The notes under the pieces are model-generated. The model was not told the DNA's origin. It did no database searches and saw nothing but the letters and a program-made list of their open reading frames with translations. Positions 1 to 28,695 of a stretch of 28,695 bases of DNA are shown in pieces. Numbering within the stretch: the stretch's first letter is position 1; every line of letters starts with the position of its first letter. Made by a program: the position numbers and the translations under genes. Source of the DNA: a virus; IMG/VR virus record IMGVR_UViG_3300030450_002828, positions 1-28,695 of that record; one strand, 5' to 3'.

Positions 1-590
1 ATCATTGAGTTACCAGAGTATAGACCTAATTTAACTCTATCTGGTCTACCATCTATTTCTATGCCTGAGAACTTCTTCTCTGACCATTTGATAGTCATTT
101 TAGTGTTATCAACAAATGCTCTAGTAAATTCTAGGTCATGGTTGTTACTTCCACTAAGGAAATGTTCTAAAAAGCTATGGTTTGAGTACCTAAGATAAGT
201 CTTACTAACCATCCCAACTATAGGATTATTAGGTTTACGGCTATCTACAATAAACTGCTGATTACTCAAGTTTCTTTTTATACTTGATTCATCTAATAGT
301 TTATTCAAATAATTTGTGGCAACATCTGTCTCATTTGGAGCCATCATGCATGGGAATAAGCCCGGTACTCCCATTTTAGTGAAAACTGCCTTAATACCGG
401 GTTCGGTAAAAGTACAACCTTCATGTGGTAATGTATTGCCTGTAGAGTATATTCTATCGTCTTCTGCGAAATAGAAAGTATCTCCATCATTAGGTAGATA
501 GTAGACATTTTCATGTTCCTCCTTGCAATAATCGACTAATTCATCTAGTTCATCAAATCTTTTAACATAGTTGTTTTGTATTGTTAGCAT
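1..590 (-). CDS. Partial phage protein, possibly DUF932-like
   Basis: This leftward gene begins at an ATG at 590 and runs off the left edge, giving about 196 residues without a stop. The ribosome site GGAGGATAAC directly precedes the ATG and lies inside the last codons of the upstream 51-residue gene, so the two are probably translationally coupled. The protein starts MLTIQNNYVKRFDEL and is acidic at its N-terminus. Its middle part (around residues 115-140, with IVDSRKPNNPIVGMVSKTYL) resembles the segment of DUF932 phage/plasmid proteins in which an arginine-aspartate strand precedes a 'GxVSxxY' stretch. That likeness is by eye and weak. DUF932 proteins are common in phage early regions and their biochemical role is not established. 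The coding call is firm; the family call is tentative. Confidence 0.6.
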   Translation of the reverse strand, partial: MLTIQNNYVKRFDELDELVDYCKEEHENVYYLPNDGDTFYFAEDDRIYSTGNTLPHEGCTFTEPGIKAVFTKMGVPGLFPCMMAPNETDVATNYLNKLLDESSIKRNLSNQQFIVDSRKPNNPIVGMVSKTYLRYSNHSFLEHFLSGSNNHDLEFTRAFVDNTKMTIKWSEKKFSGIEIDGRPDRVKLGLYSGNSM

Positions 591-591
591 G

Positions 592-747
592 TTATCCTCC
601 AGTTATTTCTTTTAAACGTGGTTCTTGAGTTACACGGTAAGATGCCGCACATGTGGGATTACAGAACGATTTACCGCTTTCTTTATGAAGTGGCCCGGGT
701 TGCAGGGTTAAATCTGCTCCGCACCATTTACACTTTCCTTTTTGCAT
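592..747 (-). CDS. 51-residue zinc-ribbon protein
   Basis: A short ORF starting MQKGKCKWCGADLTL. Two cysteine pairs, CKWC at residues 6-9 and CNPTC at 29-33, have the spacing of a small zinc-binding ribbon or treble-clef knuckle. Residues such as KSGKSFCNPTC suggest a domain like those that recognise unmodified 'short' zinc sites in phage and ribosomal proteins. The start at 747 lies inside the end of the 74-residue gene (20-nt overlap). The stop at 592-594 is one base from the ATG of the next gene, whose ribosome site is formed by this gene's own Gly-Gly-stop codons. Function is unknown; small zinc ribbons in phage early operons often bind nucleic acid or a host protein, but nothing here shows which. 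Confidence 0.7.
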   Translation of the reverse strand: MQKGKCKWCGADLTLQPGPLHKESGKSFCNPTCAASYRVTQEPRLKEITGG

Positions 748-952
748 GGTTATCCTTGATTTGGTCAATTTCTAATGTGAAATATTGATCTAATAAGTTC
801 TTCAATATTGATACTTGTTTTTGTAATGTTTGTATTTCTACATTTCTCTCTCCATCTTTAATTTGTAATAGTTTTATTTCATCAAAGATTTTATCTACTT
901 TATTTTCTAAATTAATTAACCTAATATCTAATTGGTCATTCATCTTTGACAT
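728..952 (-). CDS. 74-residue coiled-coil protein
   Basis: Nearly the whole protein is predicted helix with heptad-like spacing of Ile and Leu (for example LDIRLINLENKVDKIFDEI), so it should form a parallel or antiparallel coiled coil. The start at 952 is preferred over the internal Met at 943 because AGGAGG sits six bases before it. The gene overlaps its upstream neighbour by 17 nt and its downstream neighbour by 20 nt, so it sits in a tightly coupled leftward operon. No known family was recognised. Short coiled-coil proteins of this sort in phage early regions are often oligomerising accessory factors, but that is only a possibility. Confidence 0.7.
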   Translation of the reverse strand: MSKMNDQLDIRLINLENKVDKIFDEIKLLQIKDGERNVEIQTLQKQVSILKNLLDQYFTLEIDQIKDNHAKRKV

Positions 953-3586: not shown

Positions 3587-3823
3587 ATGCTCAAGGAGCG
3601 TTCAACGACCTCGAAGTCTGCAAGGGATGAGCGGATGGACAGGGGCTTATTATGGGAAAAAGGAGGTACAATGTCTGGATATGGTAAAACTTCAAGATTA
3701 ACTGAAAGATCACACAAGAGGGCTGAACATGCTGACAAGATTGCTCCAGCACAGACATGGATGGAGGGCTTGAAAGACAATGAGACTCTGAAGAAGCAGA
3801 GAGGTATTGTATCATCAGGGTAA
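3587..3823 (+). CDS. Small basic protein at the head of the late operon, two possible starts
   Basis: The 78-codon frame has a strong site, AGGAGG four bases before the ATG at 3587, and a second equally strong site, AAAGGAGG before the in-frame ATG at 3671. The short form of 50 residues begins MSGYGKTSRLTERSHKRAEH and is basic and helical. The 28 extra residues of the long form are also charged and come from a locally G+C-rich stretch. The stop overlaps the TerS start (TAATG), so the two are coupled. No family was recognised. Being directly in front of the terminase genes, it may help packaging; whether both forms are made is open. Confidence 0.6.
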   Translation: MLKERSTTSKSARDERMDRGLLWEKGGTMSGYGKTSRLTERSHKRAEHADKIAPAQTWMEGLKDNETLKKQRGIVSSG

Positions 3824-4251
3824 TGGATAAATCTAAGTTTATAGACACATTTGTTGAAACAGGCGATTATCTGTTGTCAATCCGTGAAGCTGGGCTAAAA
3901 GATGAGAAGAATCCTTTTAAGTTGAAGTTAAAGGCAAAGGAACTTGTTGTAGAGAACAAAGACGAGATCAACAAGAAATTCCAGCAGAGGATGAAAGAAG
4001 GTGGACCACAAGCCTTGACAGTTATCGAGCAATTGTTGCATAGTGATAGCGATACTGTGAAGCTCAATGCCGCTAAAGAAATACTAGATAGGGGTGGATA
4101 CAAAGGTTTTAGCGAAGAAGAGCAGGGAAGGACTGTGGAGGAGCTTAACGCACAATTAGTTGCACTTGTTGGTAAAGATGGTGCTAAGATGCTTGTAGGC
4201 GCATTTAGAAGCAGGAAAACTATAACTGGACCTCAACTGACTGATGGCTAA
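3823..4251 (+). CDS. terS: Terminase small subunit
   Basis: A 142-residue protein in the usual size range for phage small terminases, which recognise the packaging start on the concatemer and load the large subunit. The N-terminal part (KFIDTFVETGDYLLSIREAGL) looks like a small helical DNA-binding unit. The middle (ALTVIEQLLHSDSDTVKLNA followed by AKEILDRGGYK) carries the helical 'vk..AakeiLdr.G' pattern often seen in small terminase subunits. It starts one base inside the stop of the previous gene and overlaps the next gene by eight bases. The identification rests on this pattern and on TerL lying two genes downstream. Confidence is moderate to good. Confidence 0.65.
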   Translation: MDKSKFIDTFVETGDYLLSIREAGLKDEKNPFKLKLKAKELVVENKDEINKKFQQRMKEGGPQALTVIEQLLHSDSDTVKLNAAKEILDRGGYKGFSEEEQGRTVEELNAQLVALVGKDGAKMLVGAFRSRKTITGPQLTDG

Positions 4252-7036
4252 AAAATACAGTGGACCAGAAGGATTATGGTATCTTAAAGGGAGGCTATCT
4301 CGTCAGAAAGGTAGAGTAAATATTTTATCATCTGGCCCTGAATATATTGCCAAAAAAGCAGAAGAAAGAGGATTAAGTTCAAAAGAATACAAAGAACTAT
4401 TGAGAGGCAATTACCAGAATAACCCAAGAATTAGTGAGTTAAAAAAATCTATTGCTGAAATAGAGTCAAAGCCTAAAAAACCTTTTAGTGGGAAATGGGT
4501 AGACAAATCTAACGATGCTATGAAAAATCCCCCAACACGCAAATCTGCAAGTACTCCAAGTAGAAAAGGCATATTTATTCAGACTCCTTCTGAGGGTATT
4601 GACGATCCCGATCTCTTTAAAAAGAACATAACTAAAATATATCGTGAAGCTAAGCAGAGACATGGAGATGTTACTGTCTTGTTCCGTGATATTAGTAAAA
4701 AAGATAGTGGTGACCTCTTACTCAGACAATGGGCTGGTCAGGGTCTTACTGAGATTGAGAAAGCTCCCTATAAAACAAAGGCTGGAAGAGTGTGGAGAGC
4801 AAAGGTAGATAAAACAGGCAAGCCAAATATAACAAAAAGCAGGATACCTCTCCACAAAATTGGTGCTAATTTTAGGGATAAAGATAAAGTTGTACTTCAG
4901 AAGAGAATACAAGATCAATTAAAACATTGGGAATCTCAAGGTACTGTTCAAAGTATCTCAGTTAATACTTCAGGAGAGATAGTATATCCCGGGAAAGATA
5001 CCAAGCCTCATTTTGAACGATTTGAAGAACTTACCAAAGAAGTATATACACCAGAAGGGGGTAAGAAAAAGTCTAGTATAGGATTAGGTTACGATAAAGG
5101 TGTCGAAGCATATCTTGATGAACTGGAAGATTTTGGATCACTTAATACAGCTGAAGGTAATAAAAAGATGCTTGCAGGAATACAAGTAATCGAAGAGAAA
5201 ACAAAATCTTTTAAAAAGAATATAGCTAAAAATAAAACAACGGAACTTTATTCTGATAAGGTCTTGCAAAGAATACATAATATTAAAAAAGATTCCCCTC
5301 ATCCTTTGCATTCCTTAGATAGATTGTCTACTGATATTGATACTGGTAAAGAATTTGTAGATACAGAAGGTAAGGGTATTGATACTGATATTGGTAAATA
5401 TTATAAAAAGAAGCCCCCTACAGTTTCAGTTGATCCAAATGATGCCAGAAACATTCCTGATAGAAATAAACTCCAAAAAGGTAATGTAAAAGGTTCGAGG
5501 TTACAAAGTTTTAGTGACTTTCTTGATAGTAGCCAAAGGGTAGAAACTATTACTGCTACAGATAATATCTTAGTAAATGAAGAAGGTATAGCAAGAAGAG
5601 AAACAAAAACAGAATTAGTCAGGAAAGACCTTAAAAAATCAACAATTAAACGAAAGGGTATTACAAAACCCTATGATAACCCTGATGCCTTAGTACAAAA
5701 TTACCAGCTTGCAGAAGTAACATCTACAGATGTGAATGCCTACGAGGGTAGTGATCACGAGGATATTAAGCAATTAACAGAAGTTTCTGAAACTGAACTT
5801 GATGAAAAAGAAGTAAAACTTAAAAAACAAGATGAAGCAGTCAAAAGTATGAAAAAGTTCAGGAGATACAAAAATCCAACAAGAGCATTAAAAGCAGAAA
5901 CAGAGTTTAGGAAAGAGTATTATGCTATTGATAATGAATATGCAAAAGAAAGTGATACATTATTTGATGTTACTGCCCATACTGATAAAGAAGCTAAAGA
6001 AAAACAAGTAAAAAAAGCTAGAGTTAAAACTACTGAAGTAGAGGATTGGCAAAGTCCTAAACAGTATAGTGAACAAACAAAGACAGATAAGAGAAAAATT
6101 AATAAAAAATCCAATCCACTAGGTTTAATTGCTCCTACCAGTTCAACTCTCAGAAGACTTACAAAAGATGAGAAAGATAAAAAAATAATTGAAAAAATTA
6201 TTGAAGGAAGAAGAGAAAGAGTAGAAGGTTCTTATCAAATGGAAGGGTTTTATATAACAAGACCAGAAGATACAACACCAGATTTAAAAACAAGTACTGG
6301 TTGGGTTTCATCGCAGTTTGGGATACAAAAGGCTAGACATCCAGTAGAAAGTAATATCAAAAGACTACCCGGTGGTGGATGGACATTTGAGAATAAATTT
6401 AAGGAATTTAGTAATAAAGCATCTAGGAGTATTCCTGCTCCTGAACCTGTTGTTGCTAAAGTTACTACAGAGGTCACTCCTCCATTAAAGAAAGCTACCA
6501 CAACGAGAGCTTCTATTGAACAAAATTTAGCAACTAGAGCTAGTAATAAACAAAAGAAACTAACATTGTCTGCTCAAGAAGCTAGAACTGTTACAAAGAA
6601 AGTTCAAGAGCAATTATCTCCGGAGAAAACTAAGACAAAAGTAACAGCAAAGAAATCAACATTCGGTGCTGTTAAGTATTTGTCAAGATTTATGGTAGGT
6701 ATTCCTCCTCTTGCGGCTTATTATTCGCTATCAGCGAAAAAAGCTGAAGCAAAACCAAAAGATAAAGATAAAGTAATAACTCCATCAAATCTAGCTAAAG
6801 AAACTACCTCAATCTTATTTGGTAGCCATAGAGTATTTAGTGGTTATGGAGAAAAACCGGGGTATATCAATAAGTTAGGGGTTGGTGGGGAATATGATCG
6901 TAAAGGATTACTAAAACATTTTAATAGACCAAGAAATAAACCAATTAAAGGTGCTGGTGGCCCAGATACTCCATTTGCTAAATTTATGAACTATCGTAAG
7001 AAAAATCAGGCCATAACTAAGCAAATTAAGTATTAA
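4244..7036 (+). CDS. 930-residue lysine-rich protein of unknown function between terminase genes
   Basis: A very long, highly charged protein that starts MAKKYSGPEGLWYLKGRLSR. Residues about 100-250 look most like a folded domain (for example KKNITKIYREAKQRHGDVTV and LLRQWAGQGLTEIEKAPYK). Residues about 250-800 are rich in Lys, Glu, Thr and Asp with repeated short acidic and basic runs and are probably extended or helical. A hydrophobic stretch at about 806-830 (FMVGIPPLAAYYSLSA) could touch a membrane. The tail ends in NYRKKNQAITKQIKY. It overlaps TerS by eight bases and TerL by one base, so it is made together with the terminase. No family was recognised. It could be an ejected virion protein or a packaging-linked factor, but no motif decides this. 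Confidence 0.85.
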   Translation: MAKKYSGPEGLWYLKGRLSRQKGRVNILSSGPEYIAKKAEERGLSSKEYKELLRGNYQNNPRISELKKSIAEIESKPKKPFSGKWVDKSNDAMKNPPTRKSASTPSRKGIFIQTPSEGIDDPDLFKKNITKIYREAKQRHGDVTVLFRDISKKDSGDLLLRQWAGQGLTEIEKAPYKTKAGRVWRAKVDKTGKPNITKSRIPLHKIGANFRDKDKVVLQKRIQDQLKHWESQGTVQSISVNTSGEIVYPGKDTKPHFERFEELTKEVYTPEGGKKKSSIGLGYDKGVEAYLDELEDFGSLNTAEGNKKMLAGIQVIEEKTKSFKKNIAKNKTTELYSDKVLQRIHNIKKDSPHPLHSLDRLSTDIDTGKEFVDTEGKGIDTDIGKYYKKKPPTVSVDPNDARNIPDRNKLQKGNVKGSRLQSFSDFLDSSQRVETITATDNILVNEEGIARRETKTELVRKDLKKSTIKRKGITKPYDNPDALVQNYQLAEVTSTDVNAYEGSDHEDIKQLTEVSETELDEKEVKLKKQDEAVKSMKKFRRYKNPTRALKAETEFRKEYYAIDNEYAKESDTLFDVTAHTDKEAKEKQVKKARVKTTEVEDWQSPKQYSEQTKTDKRKINKKSNPLGLIAPTSSTLRRLTKDEKDKKIIEKIIEGRRERVEGSYQMEGFYITRPEDTTPDLKTSTGWVSSQFGIQKARHPVESNIKRLPGGGWTFENKFKEFSNKASRSIPAPEPVVAKVTTEVTPPLKKATTTRASIEQNLATRASNKQKKLTLSAQEARTVTKKVQEQLSPEKTKTKVTAKKSTFGAVKYLSRFMVGIPPLAAYYSLSAKKAEAKPKDKDKVITPSNLAKETTSILFGSHRVFSGYGEKPGYINKLGVGGEYDRKGLLKHFNRPRNKPIKGAGGPDTPFAKFMNYRKKNQAITKQIKY

Positions 7037-8475
7037 TGGTAGATAAAACAGAAATAGCAATTGACATTGCTGAAAAAATTTCAGATATTTATGAGACTTC
7101 TAGATTATTAGAATATGATCCATATGATTACCAGAAACGTTTCCATAGTGCTAAAGATGCACAAGGTAGATTAGCAAGACAACGCCTTTTGATGGCGGCT
7201 AACAAAACAGGGAAAACATTTTGTGGTGCATGTGAAATGGCTTACCACTTAACAGGGAGATACCCTAAATGGTGGACAGGAGCTAAGTTTAGTAGACCTA
7301 TTACTGCATGGGCGGCTGGAAATACTACTGCTAATACAAGAGATATTGTCCAAGCAGAATTATTAGGTGAACCCGGTGATGAAGACGAATTTGGTAAAGG
7401 TGCAATACCAAAAGAATATATTGTTGGCACTCCTTTACGGATGCCCGGTGTACCAAATGCATATCAAAGTTTGCAAGTTAAGCATGTATCTGGTAAAAAC
7501 TCTAAATTGATATTCAAGTCCTATGAACAGGGCAAGATGCAATGGATGGGTAAGGCCGTAGATGTTACATGGTTAGACGAAGAACCGCCACAAGATATAT
7601 ATTCACAGGCTCTTCGAGCGGCACTTAAAAGTGGTGGTATAGTTTACATGACATTTACACCAGAATCAGGTATGACTGATGTTGTTACTCAGTTTATGAC
7701 AAAACTAGGACAATCTCAGGCTTTATATCATGCTACTTGGGATGATGCAAAACATCTAAATGAAGATGTAAAGAAAGAAATATTAGCGGCTCTTCCTCCA
7801 CATGAGAGAGATATGAGATCAAAAGGGATTCCAATTTTGGGGTCAGGTCTTGTATTTCCTGTAAGTGAAGAAGACTTAGAAATTGAACCATTCCCATTAC
7901 CTGATTACTGGCCTAAAATATGTGGTTTGGATTTTGGATGGGATCACCCTACTGCGGCTGTCTGGATTGCTTGGGATAGAGATACCGATACAGTATATGT
8001 TTATGATTGTTACAGAAAATCGGCAGAAACTCCAGTAGTGCATTCAGCGGCAATAAGGGAACGTGGGGATTGGATTCCTGTAGTTTGGCCTCACGATGGT
8101 TCACAACATGATAAAGGATCAGGTAAGCCGTTAGCAGAATTGTATAGAAAGCAAGGTTTAAATATGATACATAAGCATTTTGAAAATAAAGAAGGAGGTA
8201 TTGCAGTAGAACCGGGTATCATGGACTTGTTACAAAGAATGCAAACTGGTAGATTTAAAGTCTTTAAGTATTTAAGAGAATGGTTCGAAGAATTGAGAAT
8301 GTATCATAGAAAAGATGGTAAAATAATAAAAGTACATGATGACTTAATGAGTGCAACACGGTATGCTTCTCAATCGTTGCAATATGCTTCATTAGGTAAG
8401 AAAAAGAAACGGCAGAGGAGAGCTATTACAGATTACGATTATTATGGTGCTTCACAGCAAAGGGCTTATTTATGA
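7036..8475 (+). CDS. terL: Terminase large subunit (ATPase-nuclease)
   Basis: This is the motor that pumps DNA into the prohead and cuts it. At 479 residues it is somewhat shorter than T7 gp19. The ATPase part has a Walker A-type loop AANKTGKT at residues 54-61 and a Walker B strand VDVTWLDEEPP at 176-185, with Glu182/Glu183 available for catalysis. The RNase H-like nuclease part shows GLDFGWDHP at 297-305 (Asp299), a strand with YVYDCY near 321, PHDGSQ at 352-357, and HDDLMSATRYA near 434 with the last metal-binding acidic residues. The C-terminus is basic. It starts within the stop of the 930-residue gene (TAATG) and overlaps the next ORF by about 30 bases. All key motifs are intact. Confidence 0.95.
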   Translation: MVDKTEIAIDIAEKISDIYETSRLLEYDPYDYQKRFHSAKDAQGRLARQRLLMAANKTGKTFCGACEMAYHLTGRYPKWWTGAKFSRPITAWAAGNTTANTRDIVQAELLGEPGDEDEFGKGAIPKEYIVGTPLRMPGVPNAYQSLQVKHVSGKNSKLIFKSYEQGKMQWMGKAVDVTWLDEEPPQDIYSQALRAALKSGGIVYMTFTPESGMTDVVTQFMTKLGQSQALYHATWDDAKHLNEDVKKEILAALPPHERDMRSKGIPILGSGLVFPVSEEDLEIEPFPLPDYWPKICGLDFGWDHPTAAVWIAWDRDTDTVYVYDCYRKSAETPVVHSAAIRERGDWIPVVWPHDGSQHDKGSGKPLAELYRKQGLNMIHKHFENKEGGIAVEPGIMDLLQRMQTGRFKVFKYLREWFEELRMYHRKDGKIIKVHDDLMSATRYASQSLQYASLGKKKKRQRRAITDYDYYGASQQRAYL

Positions 8476-8869
8476 TTTCTATTTATATGGAAAAGATGAA
8501 ATAGATAATATTTGGGAATCTATAGAAGACCAAGTTGGTAGAACAGATGATGAGTTCTTAAATAAAGATGATATAAAAAAGTATTTAAAAGAAGGATACT
8601 ATCTTTTATGTACAATTAATGATAAAACTAATAATATAGTTGCTGTAATTACTATTGAATTTGCCTACTATCCATCTCATAAGATGTGTAGAATAGTAAC
8701 AATATCTGGTAAAGATATGGATAAATGGATAGATAAAGGAATTGCTTTATTGGAAGAATTTGCAATAAAACACGAATGTACACATATTGATATGTGTGGA
8801 AGACGAGGTTGGAAAAAAATATTGAAAGATTATAAAGAAGATTGTATTTTATTAAGAAAAAGGTTATAA
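8444..8869 (+). CDS. GNAT-like acetyltransferase fold protein
   Basis: The frame runs to 8869. The first ATG at 8444 lies inside terL and has no clear ribosome site, so the start is uncertain and may be slightly downstream. The body matches the small phage GNAT-like proteins found next to terminase or head genes in marine podoviruses: YLKEGYYLLCTINDKTNNIV, then an IVAVITIEF strand, then KWIDKGIALLEEFAIKHECT, and a final GRRGWKKILKDYKE with a closing strand. The Arg/Gly-rich acetyl-CoA loop of active GNAT enzymes is not obvious, so it may be a degenerate fold used structurally or to modify a host protein. The family call is by eye. Confidence 0.6.
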   Translation: MVLHSKGLIYDFYLYGKDEIDNIWESIEDQVGRTDDEFLNKDDIKKYLKEGYYLLCTINDKTNNIVAVITIEFAYYPSHKMCRIVTISGKDMDKWIDKGIALLEEFAIKHECTHIDMCGRRGWKKILKDYKEDCILLRKRL

Positions 8870-8888
8870 CCCAAACAAAAAGGTAAAT

Positions 8889-9395: not shown

Positions 9396-9413
9396 TAACT
9401 CACGAGTTAATAC

Positions 9414-11662: not shown

Positions 11663-11928
11663 TTTCACGTTGGTTACAAGAAAAAGGTAAAAGATCAAGT
11701 TTTAAAGAGGTCTTTAGTGGAGAAGAAGGACAAGATGTATTAGCAATGCTTTCTAATGCACATTTTGTTTTCCAAACTTCTCATGCTAATGATCCATATA
11801 CCTCTGCATGGCAAGAAGGTAGAAGAACTGTAGTAATGGAGATAATAAATCTCGTTGGTGCAGATTTGGAAGCCATTAGGAAACGAATTGACTTGCAGGA
11901 ACAGGCTCGAGTTCAAAATCGGGCATAA
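11659..11928 (+). CDS. Bbp19-like structural protein
   Basis: An 89-residue protein with the pattern of the Bbp19 family first noted in Bordetella phage BPP-1. An N-terminal segment ends in a helix (EEGQDVLAMLSNAHFVFQTS), followed by 'tsaWqeGrR' (SAWQEGRRTVVMEIINLVG) and a charged helix. In that family the gene lies between portal and scaffold, exactly as here. Its precise role is not settled; it is regarded as a head-assembly or virion component. The start overlaps the HNH-like gene's stop (ATGA). Length is typical. Confidence 0.75.
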   Translation: MISRWLQEKGKRSSFKEVFSGEEGQDVLAMLSNAHFVFQTSHANDPYTSAWQEGRRTVVMEIINLVGADLEAIRKRIDLQEQARVQNRA

Positions 11929-11946
11929 CTCTAACCTAAAATAACT

Positions 11947-19495: not shown

Positions 19496-19508
19496 ATAAA
19501 GAGTTAAA

Positions 19509-21653
19509 ATGGAAATAGCAAGACCTAATTATAAAAAAACTAGAATAAATACTAAACCATTATCTATGGGTGGGCGTAGTGCTGTCCCTGAAGCTCAAGT
19601 TAATGATATAGGTAGTGACCATCATATAAGGGTTACAAAACTTCTAGAGCAAGGTGCTGTTGATCTATTTAATGCATGGGATAAAGTTGAACAAAATCGT
19701 ATTAGGCAAGAAATCCATGAAGAAAAGTTAAAAATGGATACCCATTTTCTAAAGCAAGAAGCACTTAGAGATAGTAACTTAAATCAAATAAGTTCTAAAT
19801 ATCTAAGTCCAAAAAATATGGAACAAGATTATTTAGATGATGAATATGCATATGGTAAAAATAAATTATCACCTTATACAATGTCTGAAGATATATCAGA
19901 AGATGCAAAAAAGCAATTAGAGCCAGCAGTAAAATATGGAAATGAAGCATTTATGATAAAATCTCAAACTGTTTTTGCTAAAGAATTAGTAAATAGAGGC
20001 AAAAAAATGTTAGAGACTGATCGTGTTAAGAGCCTTAATAGCTTTAATAGTGGTTTAACAGCTATGTCTAGGGGGGATGATTTACCTAAAACATTTTGGA
20101 AACCAAATAGTAATGAATTAGCTGAAAAAGCGGCTAAAGATTTTGAAGCACGTTTAGGAGAAGAAATAAAACATCAAACTTTGAGACAAAGTGAGGCAGA
20201 TACATTATTGATGAATTTTAAACAAGATTTAGCAGGAATGGTTTTCGCAAGGCATTTATCTCAGAATCCAAAAGAAGCATTAGATCAGATTAAAAAAGGA
20301 TTTAAGCAAAATATTTCAACACCACATCAACCAGATCCAATGGGTAAGGGTGATTCAAAATATGGATCAAAGTCTGGTTTATCTGTCCGTACTATTGAAA
20401 CTTATTCTGTTGGAGGTGTATCGGTTGATCCTTCTAAAGTTGCAAAATATTTAGATACAGCAATAAGCAAGGAAGCTGAAAATGCTGAAAGAGCTGAAAG
20501 AAATAATTTTAATATGTCCCAAAAACTTTTTGCCGCTCAGAATCCAGAACTGTTTTTACAAACATTTGCCGATTTTAAGAAGAGTCCTCCTCCAAGTTCT
20601 CAAAATAATCAAATTAATTTAGGTGAAACAGAAGATGATATTGAGACAGAAAGATATGTTATTAAAGATGGTATATTAGAAAATTATCCTAATTATGATC
20701 CTGCTAAATTACAAGAACATATATTAATTGCTTGGAGAGGAGAAGATGCTATAAATAAAAAAGAAAAAGCAAGAAATTTTAATAATCAAATGGGTGATTT
20801 AGAATTAAATATAAGTTCGAAAGATTTGCATATACAACGTAAACATATTAGAGATAATTATACATATGTAAAAGGTAAAGGATTTAGACCAAAAGACTAC
20901 ATAATTAATAAAATAAGTAATAAATATGATTTGAATTTTGATGATGTTCAAACAAAAATGAGAGATATTATTAAACCTCATACACATAAATATTGGCTTA
21001 CAGGTAATGAAGTAAAACTAAGACCAGCCCAATTTAATCAAATTGTAAACAGTGTTATAAAGTATCATAATACTCGAATGTTTTCATCTGGTACCGCAGA
21101 AATTATAAATCCTATTACGGATACAGATAATGAAGTATATATGTTATATAATAGTTCCCATGAGGAGCAAAAAGAAAAAATTGATGAATTAATAACTGAT
21201 TTTAATCTTTTACACCATGATAAAGAAACTTATTTAAAAATGTCTCCACAGAAATTAAATGAAACTCGTGAAAATTGGAAAGAAAAAACTATTGATAAAG
21301 AAGGTAAAAGGAATGATATCTATGGTGCATATGAATTTGCAGATAATAATTTCTTTAGACCAAGACAACAAAGTCTTATAAATTTCCCAAATGCAACAGC
21401 ACTTTCTGATATAGGATTATTAGAAAAAGTTAGTAAGGCAGGTTCTGATCCATCGGGAGGTTTGCTTAGCAGGGAAGAAAAGAAGGATCTTTTTAATCAT
21501 ATGAAGTCATTACAATTATTAAATCCATATTTAAAATTGGATGATTTTAAATGGAGTCATTATGCACCAAAACCAGCACTTGACGGAGCAAGGATATTAC
21601 ATGGTTATGATACATTTAAGACAAAAAAATTTGATAAAGAGAAATTACAATGA
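19509..21653 (+). CDS. Internal virion protein, T7 gp15-like
   Basis: A 714-residue, largely helical, hydrophilic protein, close to T7 gp15 (747 residues) in size and in gene position. It begins MEIARPNYKKTRINTKPLSM and soon enters long charged helices (NAWDKVEQNRIRQEIHEEKL). Later it contains the typical 'ALTAMSRGDDLP' and 'ADTLLMNFKQDLAGMVFARH' helices of such proteins. In T7 the gp15 ring forms part of the core stack in the head and is ejected into the cell to help build the trans-envelope channel. It ends in ATGA overlap with the next gene. There is no enzymatic motif. Confidence 0.75.
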   Translation: MEIARPNYKKTRINTKPLSMGGRSAVPEAQVNDIGSDHHIRVTKLLEQGAVDLFNAWDKVEQNRIRQEIHEEKLKMDTHFLKQEALRDSNLNQISSKYLSPKNMEQDYLDDEYAYGKNKLSPYTMSEDISEDAKKQLEPAVKYGNEAFMIKSQTVFAKELVNRGKKMLETDRVKSLNSFNSGLTAMSRGDDLPKTFWKPNSNELAEKAAKDFEARLGEEIKHQTLRQSEADTLLMNFKQDLAGMVFARHLSQNPKEALDQIKKGFKQNISTPHQPDPMGKGDSKYGSKSGLSVRTIETYSVGGVSVDPSKVAKYLDTAISKEAENAERAERNNFNMSQKLFAAQNPELFLQTFADFKKSPPPSSQNNQINLGETEDDIETERYVIKDGILENYPNYDPAKLQEHILIAWRGEDAINKKEKARNFNNQMGDLELNISSKDLHIQRKHIRDNYTYVKGKGFRPKDYIINKISNKYDLNFDDVQTKMRDIIKPHTHKYWLTGNEVKLRPAQFNQIVNSVIKYHNTRMFSSGTAEIINPITDTDNEVYMLYNSSHEEQKEKIDELITDFNLLHHDKETYLKMSPQKLNETRENWKEKTIDKEGKRNDIYGAYEFADNNFFRPRQQSLINFPNATALSDIGLLEKVSKAGSDPSGGLLSREEKKDLFNHMKSLQLLNPYLKLDDFKWSHYAPKPALDGARILHGYDTFKTKKFDKEKLQ

Positions 21654-23065
21654 ATCCGTTTGAAAATTTTGAGGAATTTAGTATTTGGATGGATAAAGTG
21701 AAAAACCGTCCAGATTCCGAAGATTATATAAGATGGCATCAAGGAACTGTTCTTGGTTTAGATCAACAAAATCCGGGTAAATTGAATATGGCTAAATCTG
21801 CATTTGTTGATTTATATGATGAATTAGATATAAATGATAGGAAAGCTATATTTGATACTTTATATAAAGATGATATAAGTGGTGTGCCAGTACAATTAGG
21901 AGGTAATGGAGATAATGCTAAGTATGAATATCGTGATATTTTTACTCAATATATGCCAGCAATGATTCAAAAAGGTAATAGAAGGAATGCTCATGGTCAT
22001 TTAATAGATATTTTAAAGCATAATTCTACCTTCAGAGATGGTACTATGATGTGGGAAGATGATAGAATTTCTATAGCACAACATATTTATAGAAATTATA
22101 GAGTCATTGATACAGGTGGTACTGAAAATTTAGTTTTTTCTACTTTAGAATTAGATAGAGAACAAATAGATATAACAGATGTAGAAAAAGGAATCCCATA
22201 TATGCTCATGTATTTTGATAAAAAGAAAGGACATAAAATTGTACCAATACCTGATGATGCTAACTTATCAGGAAAAAATGTTATTGATACAGTACAAAGA
22301 ATGAATGATGAAATTAAAGCAGAATATGGTCCAGAAGGTACTATGTGGATTTCTTTTAGACGAAATAATAATAGTACAGGAATGGAAGCTGTTATAATGG
22401 GTGGCATACACTCACAGGGTCGTTATAGACCTGTAGGGAGACCAAAAATAATCCAAGACGATGGCCCTTTTTCAAAACAGTTAAATAAAAAAACAATTCA
22501 AGATATGATTATTCCTAATAAAGTAGCATTTCAGATAATAAAAGATGCTAAATCATATTATTTTATGGAAGCACAGAATGATTGGTATGAAACTAATGCT
22601 GTTTGGCAACAAGAGCAACTTGAAAAAGGTATTAAACAAAGACCTAAGGAATATGGTGGTGCAACTGAAATTCCTGAAGATCATGATTATAGTTTTCTTG
22701 GTCAAGATACATTAAAAACTAAGATAGGTGATTATTATAAAAAATTTGGGAAGATGGTTGAGAATCCTGATACTGGTAAAAAATCTATGGAGTTCACCCA
22801 AGAAAATTCAGCTCCATTGTTTTCTAGTTGGAAGAGTGTACCACATTGGGCTATAGAAATGGCTGATCCAAGAAAATTTGAATATGATAATATTATTAAA
22901 AAATTTTGGGAAGAACACAAAGATAAATCAGAACCCGAATTTGAAAAAGCGTGGAATTTACATATAACTGAACATACTTATAATTGGAAAGATAGATGGT
23001 GGAATCAAATGTGGGGGGAACTAGCCACAGCGATATCACCTCCAAGAGTTTTTCAAAGGTATTGA
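21650..23065 (+). CDS. 471-residue internal virion protein
   Basis: This protein starts MNPFENFEEFSIWMDKVKNR and reads as an alpha/beta protein with several aromatic-rich stretches (WKSVPHWAIEMADPRKFEYD, WKDRWWNQMWGELATAISPP at the C-terminus). It sits between gp15-like and gp16-like genes and is coupled to both (ATGA on the left, a two-base gap on the right), so a virion-core role is likely. No peptidoglycan hydrolase motif was found. No named family was recognised. Confidence 0.65.
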   Translation: MNPFENFEEFSIWMDKVKNRPDSEDYIRWHQGTVLGLDQQNPGKLNMAKSAFVDLYDELDINDRKAIFDTLYKDDISGVPVQLGGNGDNAKYEYRDIFTQYMPAMIQKGNRRNAHGHLIDILKHNSTFRDGTMMWEDDRISIAQHIYRNYRVIDTGGTENLVFSTLELDREQIDITDVEKGIPYMLMYFDKKKGHKIVPIPDDANLSGKNVIDTVQRMNDEIKAEYGPEGTMWISFRRNNNSTGMEAVIMGGIHSQGRYRPVGRPKIIQDDGPFSKQLNKKTIQDMIIPNKVAFQIIKDAKSYYFMEAQNDWYETNAVWQQEQLEKGIKQRPKEYGGATEIPEDHDYSFLGQDTLKTKIGDYYKKFGKMVENPDTGKKSMEFTQENSAPLFSSWKSVPHWAIEMADPRKFEYDNIIKKFWEEHKDKSEPEFEKAWNLHITEHTYNWKDRWWNQMWGELATAISPPRVFQRY

Positions 23066-23067
23066 TT

Positions 23068-24099
23068 ATGGTAATACAAGATTACGATATAGATCAAGGT
23101 AGCGGATGGTATAGGAATCAAGTATTTGGTAATGCTATAAAAAAGTATCAACCATCAATGGAGCAACAAATAAATGCTCAACTTGAGAGATTTTTAATTG
23201 CAGGACAAAGTAATCCCATCCATTACGCTGGAAGAATAGTTGCTAATGCCTTAGATGAATCAGCAGAAATAAGTAAAGATGAATGGGAAACGCATCCTGC
23301 AAAAAGAGATGGATTAGATTGGTTTGAAGGAATGACTGAACTGCAAGCTGAGTTAGATGCGGATCAAATTGACAGAGAAGTATATTATAGTGAGTATATG
23401 AAGAATACTGACCAATGGGCGGCTCATAATGTAGCTACAATGGTTGGTACAGCATTATTTGATCCATTAACATATGTACCATTTATGGGGATAACATCTA
23501 AACTTGGTGCTATGGGTTCAAAATTAACAAAAAGATTTCAATCTGTTTCAACTTTATCTCAAACTGCTGTATCTCCAGCTAATAGTAGTTTTATTAGTAA
23601 GACTCTAACAACAATATCTTCGCCATTAAAACCAGTAGCAATTTATGCAGGAGAAGCAGGATTTGCAGAAGCGACTTTCCAAATGGTTAAAGGTGCGGCT
23701 GAAAATAATAAAGATTCAGATTATATAGCGGCTATGACAGATATAGGTATTGCTACTTTAGCTGGAGGTATCTTAGGTACAGTCCCAATGGCTAGGAAAT
23801 TAAAATCACAGTTTACCGACACACAATTGGGAGAATTTTTGGGTAAAAATATTAATGACTTTAAACAATGGGGTGAATCTAGATGGAATGGAACTGGATC
23901 TAAATCACCTAAACAATTTACTAAAGAAGAAGCAGAAGCAGAATGGAACCAAAAACAAGGTGATGTAGAGGCGGCAATAAAAGCAGAACAGAATAAAGCA
24001 TTACATCCTATTACAGAATATGTTAAAGAGTTAGGTGGTGATGTATATACAGGAACAAGTAAACTTTTAGATAAATTCTTTGGGTGTAAATTCAAATGA
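23068..24099 (+). CDS. Internal virion protein, N-terminal part of a gp16-like protein
   Basis: The frame is open from 22996, but the start chosen is the ATG at 23068, with AAAGG ten bases before it, two bases after the preceding stop; the earlier ATG would lie inside the previous gene. The 343 residues contain a long helix, then ALFDPLTYVPFMG (a 'DPLTYVP' stretch common in large ejection proteins). A glycine-rich hydrophobic segment follows (DIGIATLAGGILGTVPMARK) that could insert into membrane. It ends in ATGA overlap with the 831-residue gene. In related phages these parts are usually seen in one longer protein. Confidence 0.7.
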   Translation: MVIQDYDIDQGSGWYRNQVFGNAIKKYQPSMEQQINAQLERFLIAGQSNPIHYAGRIVANALDESAEISKDEWETHPAKRDGLDWFEGMTELQAELDADQIDREVYYSEYMKNTDQWAAHNVATMVGTALFDPLTYVPFMGITSKLGAMGSKLTKRFQSVSTLSQTAVSPANSSFISKTLTTISSPLKPVAIYAGEAGFAEATFQMVKGAAENNKDSDYIAAMTDIGIATLAGGILGTVPMARKLKSQFTDTQLGEFLGKNINDFKQWGESRWNGTGSKSPKQFTKEEAEAEWNQKQGDVEAAIKAEQNKALHPITEYVKELGGDVYTGTSKLLDKFFGCKFK

Positions 24100-26591
24100 G
24101 CCAAAAGTGTTTCGATATATTATCTAAAGCTGGATTTAGTGAAAAAGAACAAAGGTTCATTGATTCTCTTGCAGAACAAGGTAAAAGTGCCAATGAAGTG
24201 CGTGATATCATCGTTAAAGCGATGGAGGATGGTTCTTTACCAGATATTAGTGATATTATATCAAGAAAAAAAACAGATGATTATTTAGACATTTTAAAGA
24301 CAATTGTATTTGAAAGTGATAAACCTTATAAAGAGTTATTTAACTTGTTGGTAGGTGATGCAAAAGGAATTACATCTCGAGCATTAACGAGAGCGCAGTC
24401 AAGATTCGGGTATATGGCTTCTATACTAGGAGATAATAACAATAGTATTAAACGTCTTTTAAATAAACCTCAGTTTGTAGCTCATCTTTTAGAAGAATTA
24501 GATGGATGGACACCAAAATCCAAAACAGGTAACAAAAGAGCGCATAAATTTGCTAAAGCTATTAATGATTGGCAAATTGGTCAAGTAGGAGAAATGAATA
24601 CTTTTGGTGCTGGAGTTAGTATAAGAGATGATTATATTACTAAACAATGGCATGATACCTTTAGAATGATGGAAGCAGGAGAAGATGGTTGGGTAGATGA
24701 TATCTTTGTTAGATTAGATTATGAAAAAACTAAAGAACAAATGATTAATGCATTAGCAGAAAGAGGTATCGAATTATCAGAAGAATTTGATATGAAAAAG
24801 TATCTAAGATCTGCATATAAGCAAATGACAGGAGAAGGTTCAGATGAAGGTATGTTAGTACAATATCTTAGAATGAGAAGAACATTTTCTTTTAAGAGTA
24901 CTGCTGATTTGATGGCTTATAATACCAAATATGGGCATGAAAATATGGCTCATGCAATTATGGAAAATATGACCTTAATTGATAATAATATAGCTTTAGG
25001 TGAAGCAATGGGCTATGGTTACAGAATTAGTAAAACGCCTGATGAAAAAACACTAAAGAAATTACAAGATGAATTAGGAGAAGCAAAAAAATCAGAAGAA
25101 CCAGAAGCAATAAAAGAAGCACAAAAGAATTTAAAGTTAGCTACAGAAGAAGATGTTAATCCCATTACAAAAACTAAAATAGCAATGGAAATGCTACATG
25201 AACATGGGAAAATAAGTGATGGTCAACTTAGGAGATTGAGAGGTGCATTAGCACAAGTATCTGGAGATGCATATATGATTGCGAGACCAACTTTTGCTAA
25301 ATTTGTAATGGGCTTTCAATTTATGGAATATCTAACCAAATTAGGGAAAGCAACACTTACCTCTGTTAATGACCAATGGACAAGCGCATTAGTTCTTCAT
25401 TTTCAAGGAACAGGAGTAGGTAAAGGATATATGGGATTAGCAAACCATATGCTTAGGAGAGCATTTCAAAAGGTTAGCAAAGAAGAAAGAGATATCTTTT
25501 TAAGACAATTAAATGTAGGAGTTGATGGCATATTTGAAAGTTATTCAAGAAATTTTATAAATAATCCAAAAATGGGGTTATTAAATGATATGACAGATAA
25601 AATGTTTGATTGGAATCTCTTGAATTGGTGGACAAATGCAAGTAGAGAAGGATTAGCAAAAATGATGTCTAATAATTTTGCTAATAAAATGAAATTATCA
25701 TATGCAGATCTTTTAAAAAGTGAAGATGGGAAAAGATTTAGGAAATTAATTGGTGAATATGGTATAAATGAGAAAGAATGGAAAGAATTAACAGATATAG
25801 GTTCATTTGATGAAACTTTATTTAAAGGTAAGAAAGGATCAAAAAAAATTAAATATATTACATCAGATTGGGTTAAAGATCATGGCGGTTCTAAAAAGTT
25901 AAGAGAAAGCCTGAATAGGTTTTTTGTTATGGAAAGTAGATTAGGTGTGCCAGAAGCAGGAGCGGCAGACAGGGCATGGATGTATGGTGATACAAAAAGA
26001 GGATCAGTTCCAGAAACATTATCAAGATTATTCTTTCAATTTAGAACACATCAAGTAAAATTCATAAGAGCTTTAATGCCTAGAATGTACGATATGGGGT
26101 TACCATCTTTAATGCATGTATTACCAGCCTTGACATTTGGATATGCTTCTATTAGTCTAAAAAACATGGTAGCAGGGAAGCAACCTCCAGCATTTGATGA
26201 CCCAAAAACATTAACAGATGCTTTAGTATATAGTGGTTTGGCTGGATTTATAGGTGATTTTATAGCAGGACAATATGGAAGGTATCAGCATGAAGTAGAT
26301 GAAGTAATAGGAGGAAGTGCATATTCTACCATTAAAAATTGGGGTGGATTAGTTACAGGATTAGTAAATGGTGATACAAATGCACAAGAATTATGGAAAA
26401 ACTTGCGTTATAGTATTCCATACGGTAATTTATTTTGGACAGAGGCCGTTTTAAACTATGCTTTACATTATGGTGTAATGGAAACAATGACTCCGGGATA
26501 CCTAAAAAGAATGGAAGCAAGAGAAGAAGGAACTAATAATGGATTTTTAGTTAATCCTTCTAGTTTCTGGTCATATGGGGGTTTTTCATGA
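24096..26591 (+). CDS. Large internal virion protein, C-terminal part of a gp16-like protein
   Basis: An 831-residue helical protein. Segments such as KFAKAINDWQIGQVGEMNTF and YITKQWHDTFRMMEAGEDGW match the order seen in large podovirus ejection proteins ('ig.l..wg..q.Hd...m..ag...W'). The middle is rich in Lys/Glu helices, and the last third has hydrophobic pieces (LPALTFGYASISLKNMVAG, YSGLAGFIGDFIAGQYGR), as expected for a part that forms a channel across the inner membrane. No lytic transglycosylase motif was seen at the N-terminus. It ends in ATGA overlap with the fibre gene. Together with the 343-residue protein it gives 1,174 residues, near the 1,318 of T7 gp16. Confidence 0.75.
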   Translation: MSQKCFDILSKAGFSEKEQRFIDSLAEQGKSANEVRDIIVKAMEDGSLPDISDIISRKKTDDYLDILKTIVFESDKPYKELFNLLVGDAKGITSRALTRAQSRFGYMASILGDNNNSIKRLLNKPQFVAHLLEELDGWTPKSKTGNKRAHKFAKAINDWQIGQVGEMNTFGAGVSIRDDYITKQWHDTFRMMEAGEDGWVDDIFVRLDYEKTKEQMINALAERGIELSEEFDMKKYLRSAYKQMTGEGSDEGMLVQYLRMRRTFSFKSTADLMAYNTKYGHENMAHAIMENMTLIDNNIALGEAMGYGYRISKTPDEKTLKKLQDELGEAKKSEEPEAIKEAQKNLKLATEEDVNPITKTKIAMEMLHEHGKISDGQLRRLRGALAQVSGDAYMIARPTFAKFVMGFQFMEYLTKLGKATLTSVNDQWTSALVLHFQGTGVGKGYMGLANHMLRRAFQKVSKEERDIFLRQLNVGVDGIFESYSRNFINNPKMGLLNDMTDKMFDWNLLNWWTNASREGLAKMMSNNFANKMKLSYADLLKSEDGKRFRKLIGEYGINEKEWKELTDIGSFDETLFKGKKGSKKIKYITSDWVKDHGGSKKLRESLNRFFVMESRLGVPEAGAADRAWMYGDTKRGSVPETLSRLFFQFRTHQVKFIRALMPRMYDMGLPSLMHVLPALTFGYASISLKNMVAGKQPPAFDDPKTLTDALVYSGLAGFIGDFIAGQYGRYQHEVDEVIGGSAYSTIKNWGGLVTGLVNGDTNAQELWKNLRYSIPYGNLFWTEAVLNYALHYGVMETMTPGYLKRMEAREEGTNNGFLVNPSSFWSYGGFS

Positions 26592-28429
26592 TTACAACGG
26601 ATCTAAATAGAGCAGAATTTACTGGAAATAATAGTTCAACTGAGTATGTATTTGCTTCTAGTGGGACTAATATTCCTGTTAAAGATGCATCCCATATTAA
26701 AGTTTATTTAACAAATACTGGTACATTTACTGCTGATAAAGATAATAACTCAACATTTACAAATGTAACTCTTAATGGTTCAGCAAATACTTCACATGGA
26801 CATATAAATGGAGAAGTTATAAGGGTTTCAGCCGCAACTTCGTTACCTACTGGCTTATTAGCTAATACTGATTATTATATTAGAGAAAAACAAGCAACAA
26901 CTTGGAAATTAGAAACTGCGGTAGGTGCTGGTGTATCAGCTATTACAACTAATGGTGAAGGTACTCTTACTTGGAATAAAACCTTACTAAAAGCTATAAC
27001 TACTGATTATACAGTTACAATCTCAGGAACAACAGCAACAGTTAAATTTTTAGTTGCTCCTCCAACCAATGTAAAAATACTTCTACTTAGAGAAGTTCCT
27101 TTTCAACAAAATACTGATTTATTAAATAACTCTTTAATTGATGCAGAATCACTTGAAAGTCAATTAGATTTAATTGTAAATCAAGTCCAACAGCTTAAAA
27201 ATACTACTGAAAGAGATATTAGATTCTCTGACACATTACTTGCTTCTGATGCAACTGAAACACAAGCTGTTTTAAATGTAACTGCTTCAGATAGAGCAAA
27301 TAAATCAGTTAAATTTGATGCTAGTGGTAATGTAACTGTTTCATCAATAGATTTAGATAAAGCAGAAGATTATGTATTAGATTCTAAATCGTATGCAACA
27401 GAAACAGGAGCAGTAGTAAATGAATATGATGGTGGTGTTGCTACTCCACAAACAGGAAGTGGAGGTGTTTATTCTGCAAAAGAACATGCAGTAGGTACAG
27501 CAGTAACAACTGGTTCAGCTAAAGATTGGGCTAGTAAAGCACATGGAAGTGCTGTTACTTCTGGCGCATATTCAGCTTTACACCATGCTACAGATGCTCT
27601 TAATAGTGCAACAGCGGCAAATGCTTCAGCAGATGCAGTAGCGGCCTTTTTTGATGCATTTAATGATAAGTATCTAGGTGCGATGTCCAATTCGGGCGCA
27701 CAGGGTACTAATCCTACTCCTACTGGTACATGGGCTAAAAACTCATCAAGTATTACAGTTAGTAGTGCTTCAAATATTAAAGTAGGCCAAGTAGTTACTG
27801 GTACTGGTATCCCAGCAGGAGCAAACGTAATATCAATAAATAGTACAACAGTAGTTATCTCAGATAATATGGATGCGGCTGGTTCAGGAGTTACACTTAC
27901 ATTTACTGGATATGGTGTATATGGAACTTATGATGCTTCTAAGTTAGGCCCATCTACAGATAACGATAATGGTGCATTATCAGACGGATTGCTGTATTTC
28001 AATACGACTAATGATGTAATCATGGTCTATGATGAAACTACATCGAAGTGGAAACAAATTACACCAACAAGTGCTAGTCAGACAGCGATTGATACTTTAG
28101 TTAATGGAACAGATGGAACTACAGGAACAGGTGGAACAACAAAAAATATTGCATTAGTTAATACTTTAGTACCTGATTTAGATCATGTAGCACTTTTAGG
28201 TATAGATACAGTTGTTGCAAATATGGCATTATTAGGTATAGCTGGAACTGGTCAGCCGATATCTAACATGTCAATATTAGCTACTGGACATGATGGTACT
28301 GCAAATACATCAGGAACAAAAACAAATTTAGAACAAATTGATACTTGTGCAGATAATATTGGAGCATTAAACACAGTTGCGAGTAATGCAGAAGGTAATG
28401 CCATTTCGATGGCGATTGCGTTGGGCTAG
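26588..28429 (+). CDS. Tail fibre protein with T7-like N-terminal attachment domain
   Basis: A 613-residue fibre. The start (MITTDLNRAEFTGNNSSTEY) and the later segment VKILLLREVPFQQNTDLLNN with LESQLDLIVNQVQQLKNTTE are the T7 gp17-type N-terminal domain and following coiled coil that anchor the fibre to the tail. Two modules interrupt it: one at residues about 44-131 inside the N-terminal domain and another at about 367-450, which splits the usual 'kYLGa..' and 'DNDNGALSDGLLYFNTTNDV' parts. The C-terminus has repeats of 'ALLGIDTVVANMALLGIAG' style, probably a trimeric rod. It lacks an obvious receptor-binding head, so adhesion may need a further protein. It overlaps the previous gene by ATGA. 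Confidence 0.88.
   Translation: MITTDLNRAEFTGNNSSTEYVFASSGTNIPVKDASHIKVYLTNTGTFTADKDNNSTFTNVTLNGSANTSHGHINGEVIRVSAATSLPTGLLANTDYYIREKQATTWKLETAVGAGVSAITTNGEGTLTWNKTLLKAITTDYTVTISGTTATVKFLVAPPTNVKILLLREVPFQQNTDLLNNSLIDAESLESQLDLIVNQVQQLKNTTERDIRFSDTLLASDATETQAVLNVTASDRANKSVKFDASGNVTVSSIDLDKAEDYVLDSKSYATETGAVVNEYDGGVATPQTGSGGVYSAKEHAVGTAVTTGSAKDWASKAHGSAVTSGAYSALHHATDALNSATAANASADAVAAFFDAFNDKYLGAMSNSGAQGTNPTPTGTWAKNSSSITVSSASNIKVGQVVTGTGIPAGANVISINSTTVVISDNMDAAGSGVTLTFTGYGVYGTYDASKLGPSTDNDNGALSDGLLYFNTTNDVIMVYDETTSKWKQITPTSASQTAIDTLVNGTDGTTGTGGTTKNIALVNTLVPDLDHVALLGIDTVVANMALLGIAGTGQPISNMSILATGHDGTANTSGTKTNLEQIDTCADNIGALNTVASNAEGNAISMAIALG
26721..26980 (+). other. Inserted immunoglobulin-like module in the fibre N-terminus
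   Basis: Residues about 44-131 of the fibre: 'HGHINGEVIRVSAATSLPTG', 'LLANTDYYIREKQATTWKLE'. It is inserted within the T7-type attachment domain and closely parallels nozzle module 2 (17161-17412). Confidence 0.6.
27690..27935 (+). other. Second inserted module in the fibre ('GTGIPAG' type)
   Basis: About 80 residues containing SSASNIKVGQVVTGTGIPAG and ISINSTTVVISDNMDAAGSG lie between the 'KYLGAMSN' and 'GPSTDNDNGALSDGLLYF' halves of a segment that is normally continuous in marine phage fibres. The 'GTGIP.G..V..I....v.iS' pattern is a common add-on in phage tail proteins. Confidence 0.55.
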
Positions 28430-28456
28430 TAACTAACTGAATATAAAGGATAAAAC

Positions 28457-28695
28457 ATGGCAAATGCATTTAAAAACGTAACCATTCAAGGAAGTTTAGC
28501 GGCAGATACAGATCATACAATTGGTGCGGCTGTCGGTTCTGCTTCTACTACACAAACTATTATAGGAATGACTGTAGCAAATGTAAGTGCTGAAGTAATA
28601 AATGTTTCAGTTAAAATGTTTCTCAATACAACAGAAACTTACATAGTTAAAGATGCACCAATTCCTGTAGGTGGTAGTTTAGTAGTAGTTGGAGG
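28457..28695 (+). CDS. Small virion-associated protein, cut by window edge
   Basis: The start is the ATG at 28457, with AAAGGA six bases before it. The 79 visible residues (MANAFKNVTIQGSLAADTDH, continuing IIGMTVANVSAEVINVSVKM) are strand-forming and look like the small 'MANAFKN...' proteins often found beside fibre genes in marine phages. These are annotated as hypothetical or structural. Its position right after the fibre suggests a tail or fibre accessory. It has no stop within the window. Confidence 0.6.
   Translation, partial: MANAFKNVTIQGSLAADTDHTIGAAVGSASTTQTIIGMTVANVSAEVINVSVKMFLNTTETYIVKDAPIPVGGSLVVVG

What the first reader, a model, noticed from the sequence alone, without database searches (positions are those of the whole stretch)
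1..28695. GCWGC sites appear absent, and Ala-Ala pairs are recoded to avoid them
Scanning by eye for GCAG and GCTG (well over 100 hits), I found none followed by C. A rough base-composition estimate would be of the order of 15-20 GCWGC sites. GCGGC and GCCGC are common. In the roughly 35 Ala-Ala pairs checked, the first alanine is GCG or GCC (for example MAANK, LAALP and SAAIR in TerL), although GCA and GCT dominate elsewhere. This codon-context shift argues for selection against GCWGC, most simply to escape a restriction or methylation-based defence (BbvI recognises GCAGC; TseI and ApeKI recognise GCWGC). It may point to the host.
Basis: partly seen in the sequence, partly recalled or inferred. 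Interest (0 to 1): 0.75.

Follow-up and report, generated by a model that had tools for sequence, protein, structure and literature searches.

The report
Phage genome purged of GCWGC sites
A marine phage and its close kin have removed every GCWGC and CCWGG from their DNA, most likely to escape restriction enzymes in their hosts, and in some related phages the same pressure has gone on to remove whole amino-acid pairs such as Ala-Ala or Pro-Gly from the proteins.

Summary
Confirmed and extended. The window has 0 GCWGC (29.4±2.4 expected from a codon shuffle that keeps the proteins) and also 0 CCWGG (18.5±2.5). These are the two most avoided of all 5-mers. All 32 Ala codons before a GC codon are GCG/GCC, against 11% elsewhere. 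Across 55 related loci (416 kb) there are 6 GCWGC against about 641 expected. They are missing out of frame and between genes too, so selection acts on DNA, not on codons or dipeptides. At homologous Ala-Ala positions in TerL, tolerant lineages use GCA/GCT (83 of 85) and avoiding lineages GCG/GCC (333 of 333). The TerL tree needs at least 8 switches of state. The phages carry no C5 methyltransferase (0 of 50). Palindromes are over-represented among lost words. The best explanation is escape from Type II restriction by hosts; the enzyme and host were not found (SAR86 is a weak lead). Restriction-site avoidance is a known kind. What I could not find described is its protein-level reach. Relatives that shun all GCNGC have almost no Ala-Ala (10 vs 95). 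Cultured pelagiphage HTVC011P has Ala-Ala 2 vs 54 and Pro-Gly and Gly-Pro 0 vs 21. T7, known to lack CCWGG, has Pro-Gly 7 vs 29.

The parts
1..28695 (.). Whole record: 0 GCWGC and 0 CCWGG on either strand (both motifs are palindromic)
   Evidence: expected 28.8-29.4 GCWGC and 18.5-26.9 CCWGG
7036..8475 (+). Terminase large subunit (TerL), reference gene for the tree; six Ala-Ala pairs, all GCSGC (7195, 7312, 7618, 7786, 7954, 8047)
   Evidence: (phrog_2, 3e-35)
3823..4251 (+). Likely terminase small subunit
   Evidence: phrog_2538, 4e-5
9414..11063 (+). Head-tail connector (portal) protein
   Evidence: phrog_332, 1e-125
12924..13910 (+). Major head protein; Ala-Ala codon pairs at 13290 and 13572 written GCCGC
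   Evidence: phrog_3437, 4e-53
15109..17880 (+). Tail tubular protein B-like; GCSGC at 16378 and 16456, CCSGG at 15259
7195..7199 (+). Example of recoding: Ala54-Ala55 of TerL (MAANK) written GCGGC; tolerant relatives have GCAGC or GCTGC at the same codon pair (21 of 21)
4244..28429 (+). Late structural region where most Ala-Ala pairs (all written GCSGC) and Pro-Gly pairs (CCSGG) lie

Best explanation
This is restriction-site avoidance. The phage lineage has lived long enough in hosts carrying Type II restriction systems (or equivalent sequence-specific nucleases) for GCWGC and CCWGG that every site has been lost, mostly by synonymous change of the third base of the first codon (Ala GCA/GCT to GCG/GCC; Pro CCA/CCT to CCC/CCG). 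The phage has no known methyltransferase of its own to protect sites. Lineages that leave such hosts slowly regain sites, and lineages facing GCNGC or CCNGG specificities cannot escape synonymously and lose the dipeptides Ala-Ala or Pro-Gly. Shown: the absence, the recoding, the DNA level of selection, the lineage switching. Inferred: that the agent is a host Type II enzyme; its identity and the host are unknown.
For: 0 GCWGC vs 29.4 and 0 CCWGG vs 18.5 with proteins held constant. In 55 W-avoiding loci by codon frame: GCWGC 5/0/1 vs 559/11/71 expected, CCWGG 8/0/1 vs 385/73/73; in 29.7 kb of non-coding DNA 0 vs 15.9 and 1 vs 21.4. Homologous TerL Ala-Ala sites: 83 of 85 GCW in tolerant lineages, 333 of 333 GCS in avoiding ones. 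At least 8 changes of state on the TerL tree. Words missing altogether are enriched in palindromes: window 3 of 28 palindromic vs 4 of 1322 other 6-mers, Fisher p = 2.6e-4; HTVC011P 13 of 31 vs 55 of 1385, p = 2e-10. No C5 methyltransferase in 50 records; one clear N4/N6 methyltransferase. A 38.5-kb relative avoids GCWGC genome-wide (2 vs 52) while keeping CCWGG (68 vs 58), so the motifs are selected separately. Partial lineages have 31 GCWGC vs about 97 expected but still an excess of GCSGC (77 vs about 24), a relic of past avoidance. T7, a known avoider, shows the same picture for CCWGG, 2 vs 51. GCWGC and CCWGG are known Type II specificities (PMC10734518, PMC6329791, PMC4081073).
Against: No GCWGC or CCWGG nuclease was found in a demonstrated host. 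Complete Type II systems are reported as scarce in marine MAGs and absent from SAR11 (PMC9516812), yet cultured pelagiphages lack many such sites. The SAR86 MAG that holds a relative's contig has no C5 methyltransferase, though 51 of 199 genomes drawn from its order have a match.
Confidence: 0.82

Rival explanations
1. The phage (or a co-resident phage) encodes its own GCWGC/CCWGG nuclease that degrades host or competitor DNA, and its genome lacks the sites to be immune to it.
For: The phages lack C5 methyltransferases, so passive immunity would be needed; relatives such as Baldr carry a small HNH nuclease and PD-(D/E)XK proteins. The early region is not in the window.
Against: Two or more motifs are purged at once, and cultured pelagiphages lack many, which would need many nucleases in 35-42 kb genomes. 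T7 purges CCWGG without encoding such an enzyme (established knowledge).
Confidence: 0.07
2. Methyl-dependent (Type IV-like) restriction: a host orphan methyltransferase marks GCWGC/CCWGG and a second system attacks DNA methylated there (BisI-like enzymes cut Gm5CNGC).
For: Orphan Type II methyltransferases are reported as common in marine genomes (PMC9516812); BisI-like enzymes exist (PMC8281217); 51 of 199 SAR86-order genomes match the C5 methyltransferase family.
Against: A host cannot carry both halves with the same mark; it needs two host types. The large survey of phage genomes found elimination almost only for orthodox Type II sites (PMC6286503).
Confidence: 0.06
3. Codon-pair or translation effect: GCA-GCN and GCT-GCN (or the dipeptides) are bad for translation.
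For: Most sites would lie in frame (26.9 of 29 expected in the window).
Against: Out-of-frame sites (GCWGC 1 vs 82.5, CCWGG 1 vs 146) and non-coding sites (0 vs 15.9, 1 vs 21.4) are purged as well. The dipeptides persist when written with S, and sister phages use GCA-GCN freely.
Confidence: 0.02
4. Mutation bias (for example deamination at a methylated cytosine) or an assembly or library artefact.
For: Metagenome contigs; GCWGC can carry methylcytosine.
Against: The change seen at homologous sites is the middle W to S, against the genome's A+T preference, not C to T. The same metagenomes yield GCWGC-rich contigs (3300030382: L014 has 0 and L171 has 41; 3300020472: L046 has 1 and L170 has 12), and the isolate Baldr shows the same absence.
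Confidence: 0.02

Closest known systems
Recognition-site avoidance in phages (Rusinov et al. 2018, PMC6286503); T7 and EcoRII/Dcm sites (CCWGG)
   Same: Near-complete loss of short palindromic Type II sites from a dsDNA phage genome; T7 shows CCWGG 2 vs 51 and GATC 6 vs 123 here.
   Different: There the host enzymes are known. Here host and enzyme are unknown, the W form is fully removed while the S form is enriched about fivefold, and the state can be followed through more than a hundred relatives.
GANTC depletion in pelagiphages (Seong et al. 2022, PMC9516812)
   Same: Marine phages, lineage-dependent depletion of a methylation motif, no restriction system found in the host.
   Different: That paper treats one motif by density and its main text does not mention GCWGC. 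Here GANTC is normal in the window (77 sites, as expected) and the purged motifs are GCWGC and CCWGG.
GCWGC methyltransferases such as M.AbaBS3I of Lake Biwa Chloroflexi (PMC6329791) and M.LmoJ2I, M.EfaRFI and others (listed in PMC10734518)
   Same: Show that GCWGC is a natural methylation specificity, including in uncultured plankton.
   Different: None is linked to this phage or its host.

Membership tests
Restriction-site avoidance (anti-restriction by site loss) | Motif far below expectation under a null that keeps protein and codon usage | tested here: met
   0 vs 29.4 (sd 2.4) and 0 vs 18.5 (sd 2.5)
Restriction-site avoidance (anti-restriction by site loss) | Acts on DNA: all frames and non-coding DNA affected | tested here: met
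Restriction-site avoidance (anti-restriction by site loss) | Avoided words are of Type II kind (short palindromes) | tested here: met
   GCWGC, CCWGG; palindromes enriched among absent 6-mers, p = 2.6e-4
Restriction-site avoidance (anti-restriction by site loss) | Phage does not protect the sites by its own methylation | tested here: inconclusive
   0 of 50 records with a C5 methyltransferase, 1 of 50 over the cut-off for N4/N6; many records, the window included, are fragments
Restriction-site avoidance (anti-restriction by site loss) | Host encodes a restriction enzyme of that specificity | tested here: inconclusive
   Host unknown; SAR86-order genomes carry C5 methyltransferases, some about 42% identical to Dcm, specificity not established, no cognate nuclease recognised
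Restriction-site avoidance (anti-restriction by site loss) | Plating efficiency falls when sites are present | not testable with these tools
   needs culture

The most novel reading that the evidence does not exclude
Restriction pressure in the ocean is strong and varied enough to set rules on phage protein sequence. When a host specificity leaves no synonymous escape (GCNGC, CCNGG, GGNCC), phages lose the corresponding dipeptides (Ala-Ala, Pro-Gly, Gly-Pro) from the whole proteome, as in cultured pelagiphages HTVC011P and HTVC019P. SAR11 and similar streamlined hosts must then wield, or their phages must otherwise meet, a large Type II repertoire that genome surveys have not seen.
Probability: 0.55. 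Interest if true: 0.78.

Novelty: new variant of a known kind. Interest (0 to 1): 0.58.

Why it matters
Site avoidance by phages is known, but here one can watch it switch on and off along a tree and see three stages: synonymous recoding (W to S), relic signatures after release, and loss of amino-acid pairs when no synonymous escape exists. It gives a sequence-only read-out of which restriction specificities uncultured marine hosts wield. It also sharpens an open puzzle that cultures can test: SAR11 genomes are reported to lack restriction systems, yet their phages behave as if they meet dozens.

Tried and rejected
Mutual exclusion of GCWGC and GCSGC: in the sister clade L060-L064 GCWGC and CCWGG are normal and CCSGG is zero, but CCSGG always contains CCGG, which that clade avoids (2 vs 27.9), so it is a separate motif and not an exclusion rule. 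Host from tRNAs: none in the window or nine long relatives. Host from genome bins: one SAR86 MAG contig at 89% TerL identity, weak because pelagiphage-like contigs sit in a Verrucomicrobia bin. That SAR86 MAG has no C5 methyltransferase. Genes next to Dcm-like methyltransferases in the SAR86 order gave RmuC, ATPase, WYL and metabolic genes but no recognisable restriction nuclease. L197 was first counted among the GCNGC-less phages; it covers only upstream genes, and its near-identical relative L196 (downstream genes) uses GCSGC, so L197 is doubtful; without it the group total is 10 Ala-Ala vs about 86. CRISPR PAM avoidance (PMC4246573) considered and set aside: PAMs are not palindromic and total absence is not expected. 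A literature search for dipeptide effects of site avoidance found nothing, in an open-access library only; the survey PMC6286503 does not contain the words 'amino acid' or 'dipeptide'.

Full report
The observation. The 28,695-base window (34.5% G+C) is an IMG/VR virus record holding the structural half of a marine podovirus: terminase, connector, major head protein, tail tubular proteins and large virion proteins. An exact count gives no GCAGC and no GCTGC, with 99 GCAG and 76 GCTG, while GCGGC occurs 26 times and GCCGC 9 times. A maximal-order Markov model expects 28.8. A shuffle that keeps every protein and the codon usage expects 29.4 with standard deviation 2.4, and none of 300 shuffles fell below 23. 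Both S-centred forms are raised: GCSGC 32 against 6.3 and CCSGG 18 against 3.7. Of 32 Ala codons followed by a GC codon, 24 are GCG and 8 GCC, whereas 543 of the 610 other Ala codons are GCA or GCT (Fisher p = 8e-29).

DNA, not codons. Most potential sites are codon-aligned, so the window alone cannot separate DNA from codon effects well. I therefore pooled 55 related loci (416 kb) found through TerL that share the state. By codon frame they have 5, 0 and 1 GCWGC against 559, 11 and 71 expected, and 8, 0 and 1 CCWGG against 385, 73 and 73. In 29.7 kb of non-coding DNA they have 0 GCWGC and 1 CCWGG against 15.9 and 21.4. The loci are related, so these are not independent draws, but the lack in every frame and between genes rules out codon-pair or translational causes. 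Pro-Gly and Ala-Ala persist in the window when written with S, so the dipeptides themselves are tolerated.

History. Among 137 relatives with enough TerL, 83 lack GCWGC but keep GCSGC, 36 are tolerant, 11 are partial and 7 have nearly no GCNGC. On the TerL tree an avoid/tolerate character needs at least 8 changes. At six aligned Ala-Ala positions tolerant lineages write the first codon GCA or GCT in 83 of 85 cases, avoiding lineages GCG or GCC in 333 of 333, and the GCNGC-poor lineages have mostly replaced the pair by Ala-Cys, Ser-Ala, His-Ala and the like. Partial lineages have about a third of the expected GCWGC but still three times the expected GCSGC (31 vs 97 and 77 vs 24, summed), as expected if they descend from avoiders and the pressure has eased. 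A complete-looking relative (38.5 kb, L187 record) has 2 GCWGC against 52 across the genome but 68 CCWGG against 58, so the two motifs are purged independently. Its tolerant cousin (38.4 kb) has 60 against 54.

Artefacts. Avoiding and tolerant contigs come from the same metagenomes (3300030382: L014 and L171; 3300020472: L046 and L170), and the cultured phage Baldr shows the same absence (0 vs 38.8). The apparent mirror image in the sister clade (CCSGG zero) is a consequence of CCGG avoidance, since every CCSGG contains CCGG.

Mechanism. Words absent from the window are enriched in palindromes (3 of 28 palindromic 6-mers expected at least five times, against 4 of 1322 others, p = 2.6e-4), which is the mark of orthodox Type II systems in the survey of Rusinov et al. 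(PMC6286503). No C5 methyltransferase was found in 50 records of the group and only one clear N4/N6 methyltransferase, so passive escape fits. The recoding goes against the A+T preference of the genome, which argues against mutation bias. The agent itself is inferred. The host is unknown: a relative at 89% TerL identity sits in a SAR86 MAG, but bins mislead. In the order of that MAG 51 of 199 genomes match the C5 methyltransferase family (47 over the cut-off); six of the proteins are 39-42% identical to Dcm over its catalytic and target-recognition part, yet I could not establish a specificity or a cognate nuclease. GCWGC methylation is known from freshwater Chloroflexi (PMC6329791).

Beyond the window. 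When the avoided motif has an N in the middle there is no synonymous escape: Ala-Ala is always GCNGC, Pro-Gly always CCNGG, Gly-Pro always GGNCC. Nine GCNGC-poor relatives have 10 Ala-Ala against 95 expected from residue content, the most depleted of all dipeptides; one of them (L197) is doubtful because it covers other genes. Cultured pelagiphages show the same for other pairs: HTVC011P Ala-Ala 2 vs 54, Pro-Gly 0 vs 21, Gly-Pro 0 vs 21; HTVC019P Pro-Gly 0 vs 21 and Gly-Pro 0 vs 21; HTVC031P Gly-Pro 0 vs 23 and Pro-Gly 2 vs 23; Baldr Pro-Gly 0 vs 23; roseophage CRP-804 Pro-Gly 1 vs 38. T7, the textbook CCWGG avoider, has Pro-Gly 7 vs 29. Phages that keep the motifs have ratios between about 0.6 and 1.2 in most cases, so part of any single deficit may be ordinary protein preference (HTVC100P Pro-Gly 7 vs 18 with 15 CCWGG is a caution), but zeros against 21-23 are not. 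The same isolates lack many further short words, such as GATC, TCGA, CTNAG, GANTC and GGNCC, in phage-specific sets. SAR11 genomes are reported to lack restriction systems (PMC9516812), which leaves the source of this pressure open. I found no report of the dipeptide effect in the open-access library searched, which is not proof of novelty.

Verdict. Real, strong, and of a known kind (restriction-site avoidance), with a graded protein-level consequence that appears undescribed. The missing piece is the host and its enzyme.

Noticed in passing
L085 (HTVC011P), L086 (HTVC019P), L258 (HTVC031P), L082 (Baldr): Cultured pelagiphages lack the dipeptides Pro-Gly and/or Gly-Pro (and Ala-Ala in HTVC011P) because they avoid CCNGG, GGNCC or GCNGC altogether.
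   Followed up: partly
L057, L071, L173, L174, L179, L180, L185, L189: Uncultured TerL relatives with almost no GCNGC and almost no Ala-Ala dipeptides; homologous Ala-Ala pairs in TerL replaced by Ala-Cys, Ser-Ala, His-Ala and others.
   Followed up: yes
L082-L088: Each pelagiphage lacks dozens of short words, including non-palindromic 5-mers such as CCTGA, CATCG, CATCC (GGATG) and ACTGG, as if facing many Type II and IIS specificities.
   Followed up: partly
L261 (T7): T7 is depleted in Pro-Gly (7 vs 29) and Gly-Pro (11 vs 29) along with CCWGG (2 vs 51).
   Followed up: no
window 1-28695: CAGGT is at a third of expectation (22 vs 65) and CCCAG at a quarter (4 vs 15) although not absent; CAGTG 2 vs 18; cause not clear.
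   Followed up: no
L224, L230 (SAR86-order genomes): Dcm-like cytosine methyltransferase genes next to rmuC-like genes in two genomes.
   Followed up: no
L090, L123: Pelagiphage-like terminase contigs binned in a Verrucomicrobia MAG (TMED56), evidently a binning error.
   Followed up: no
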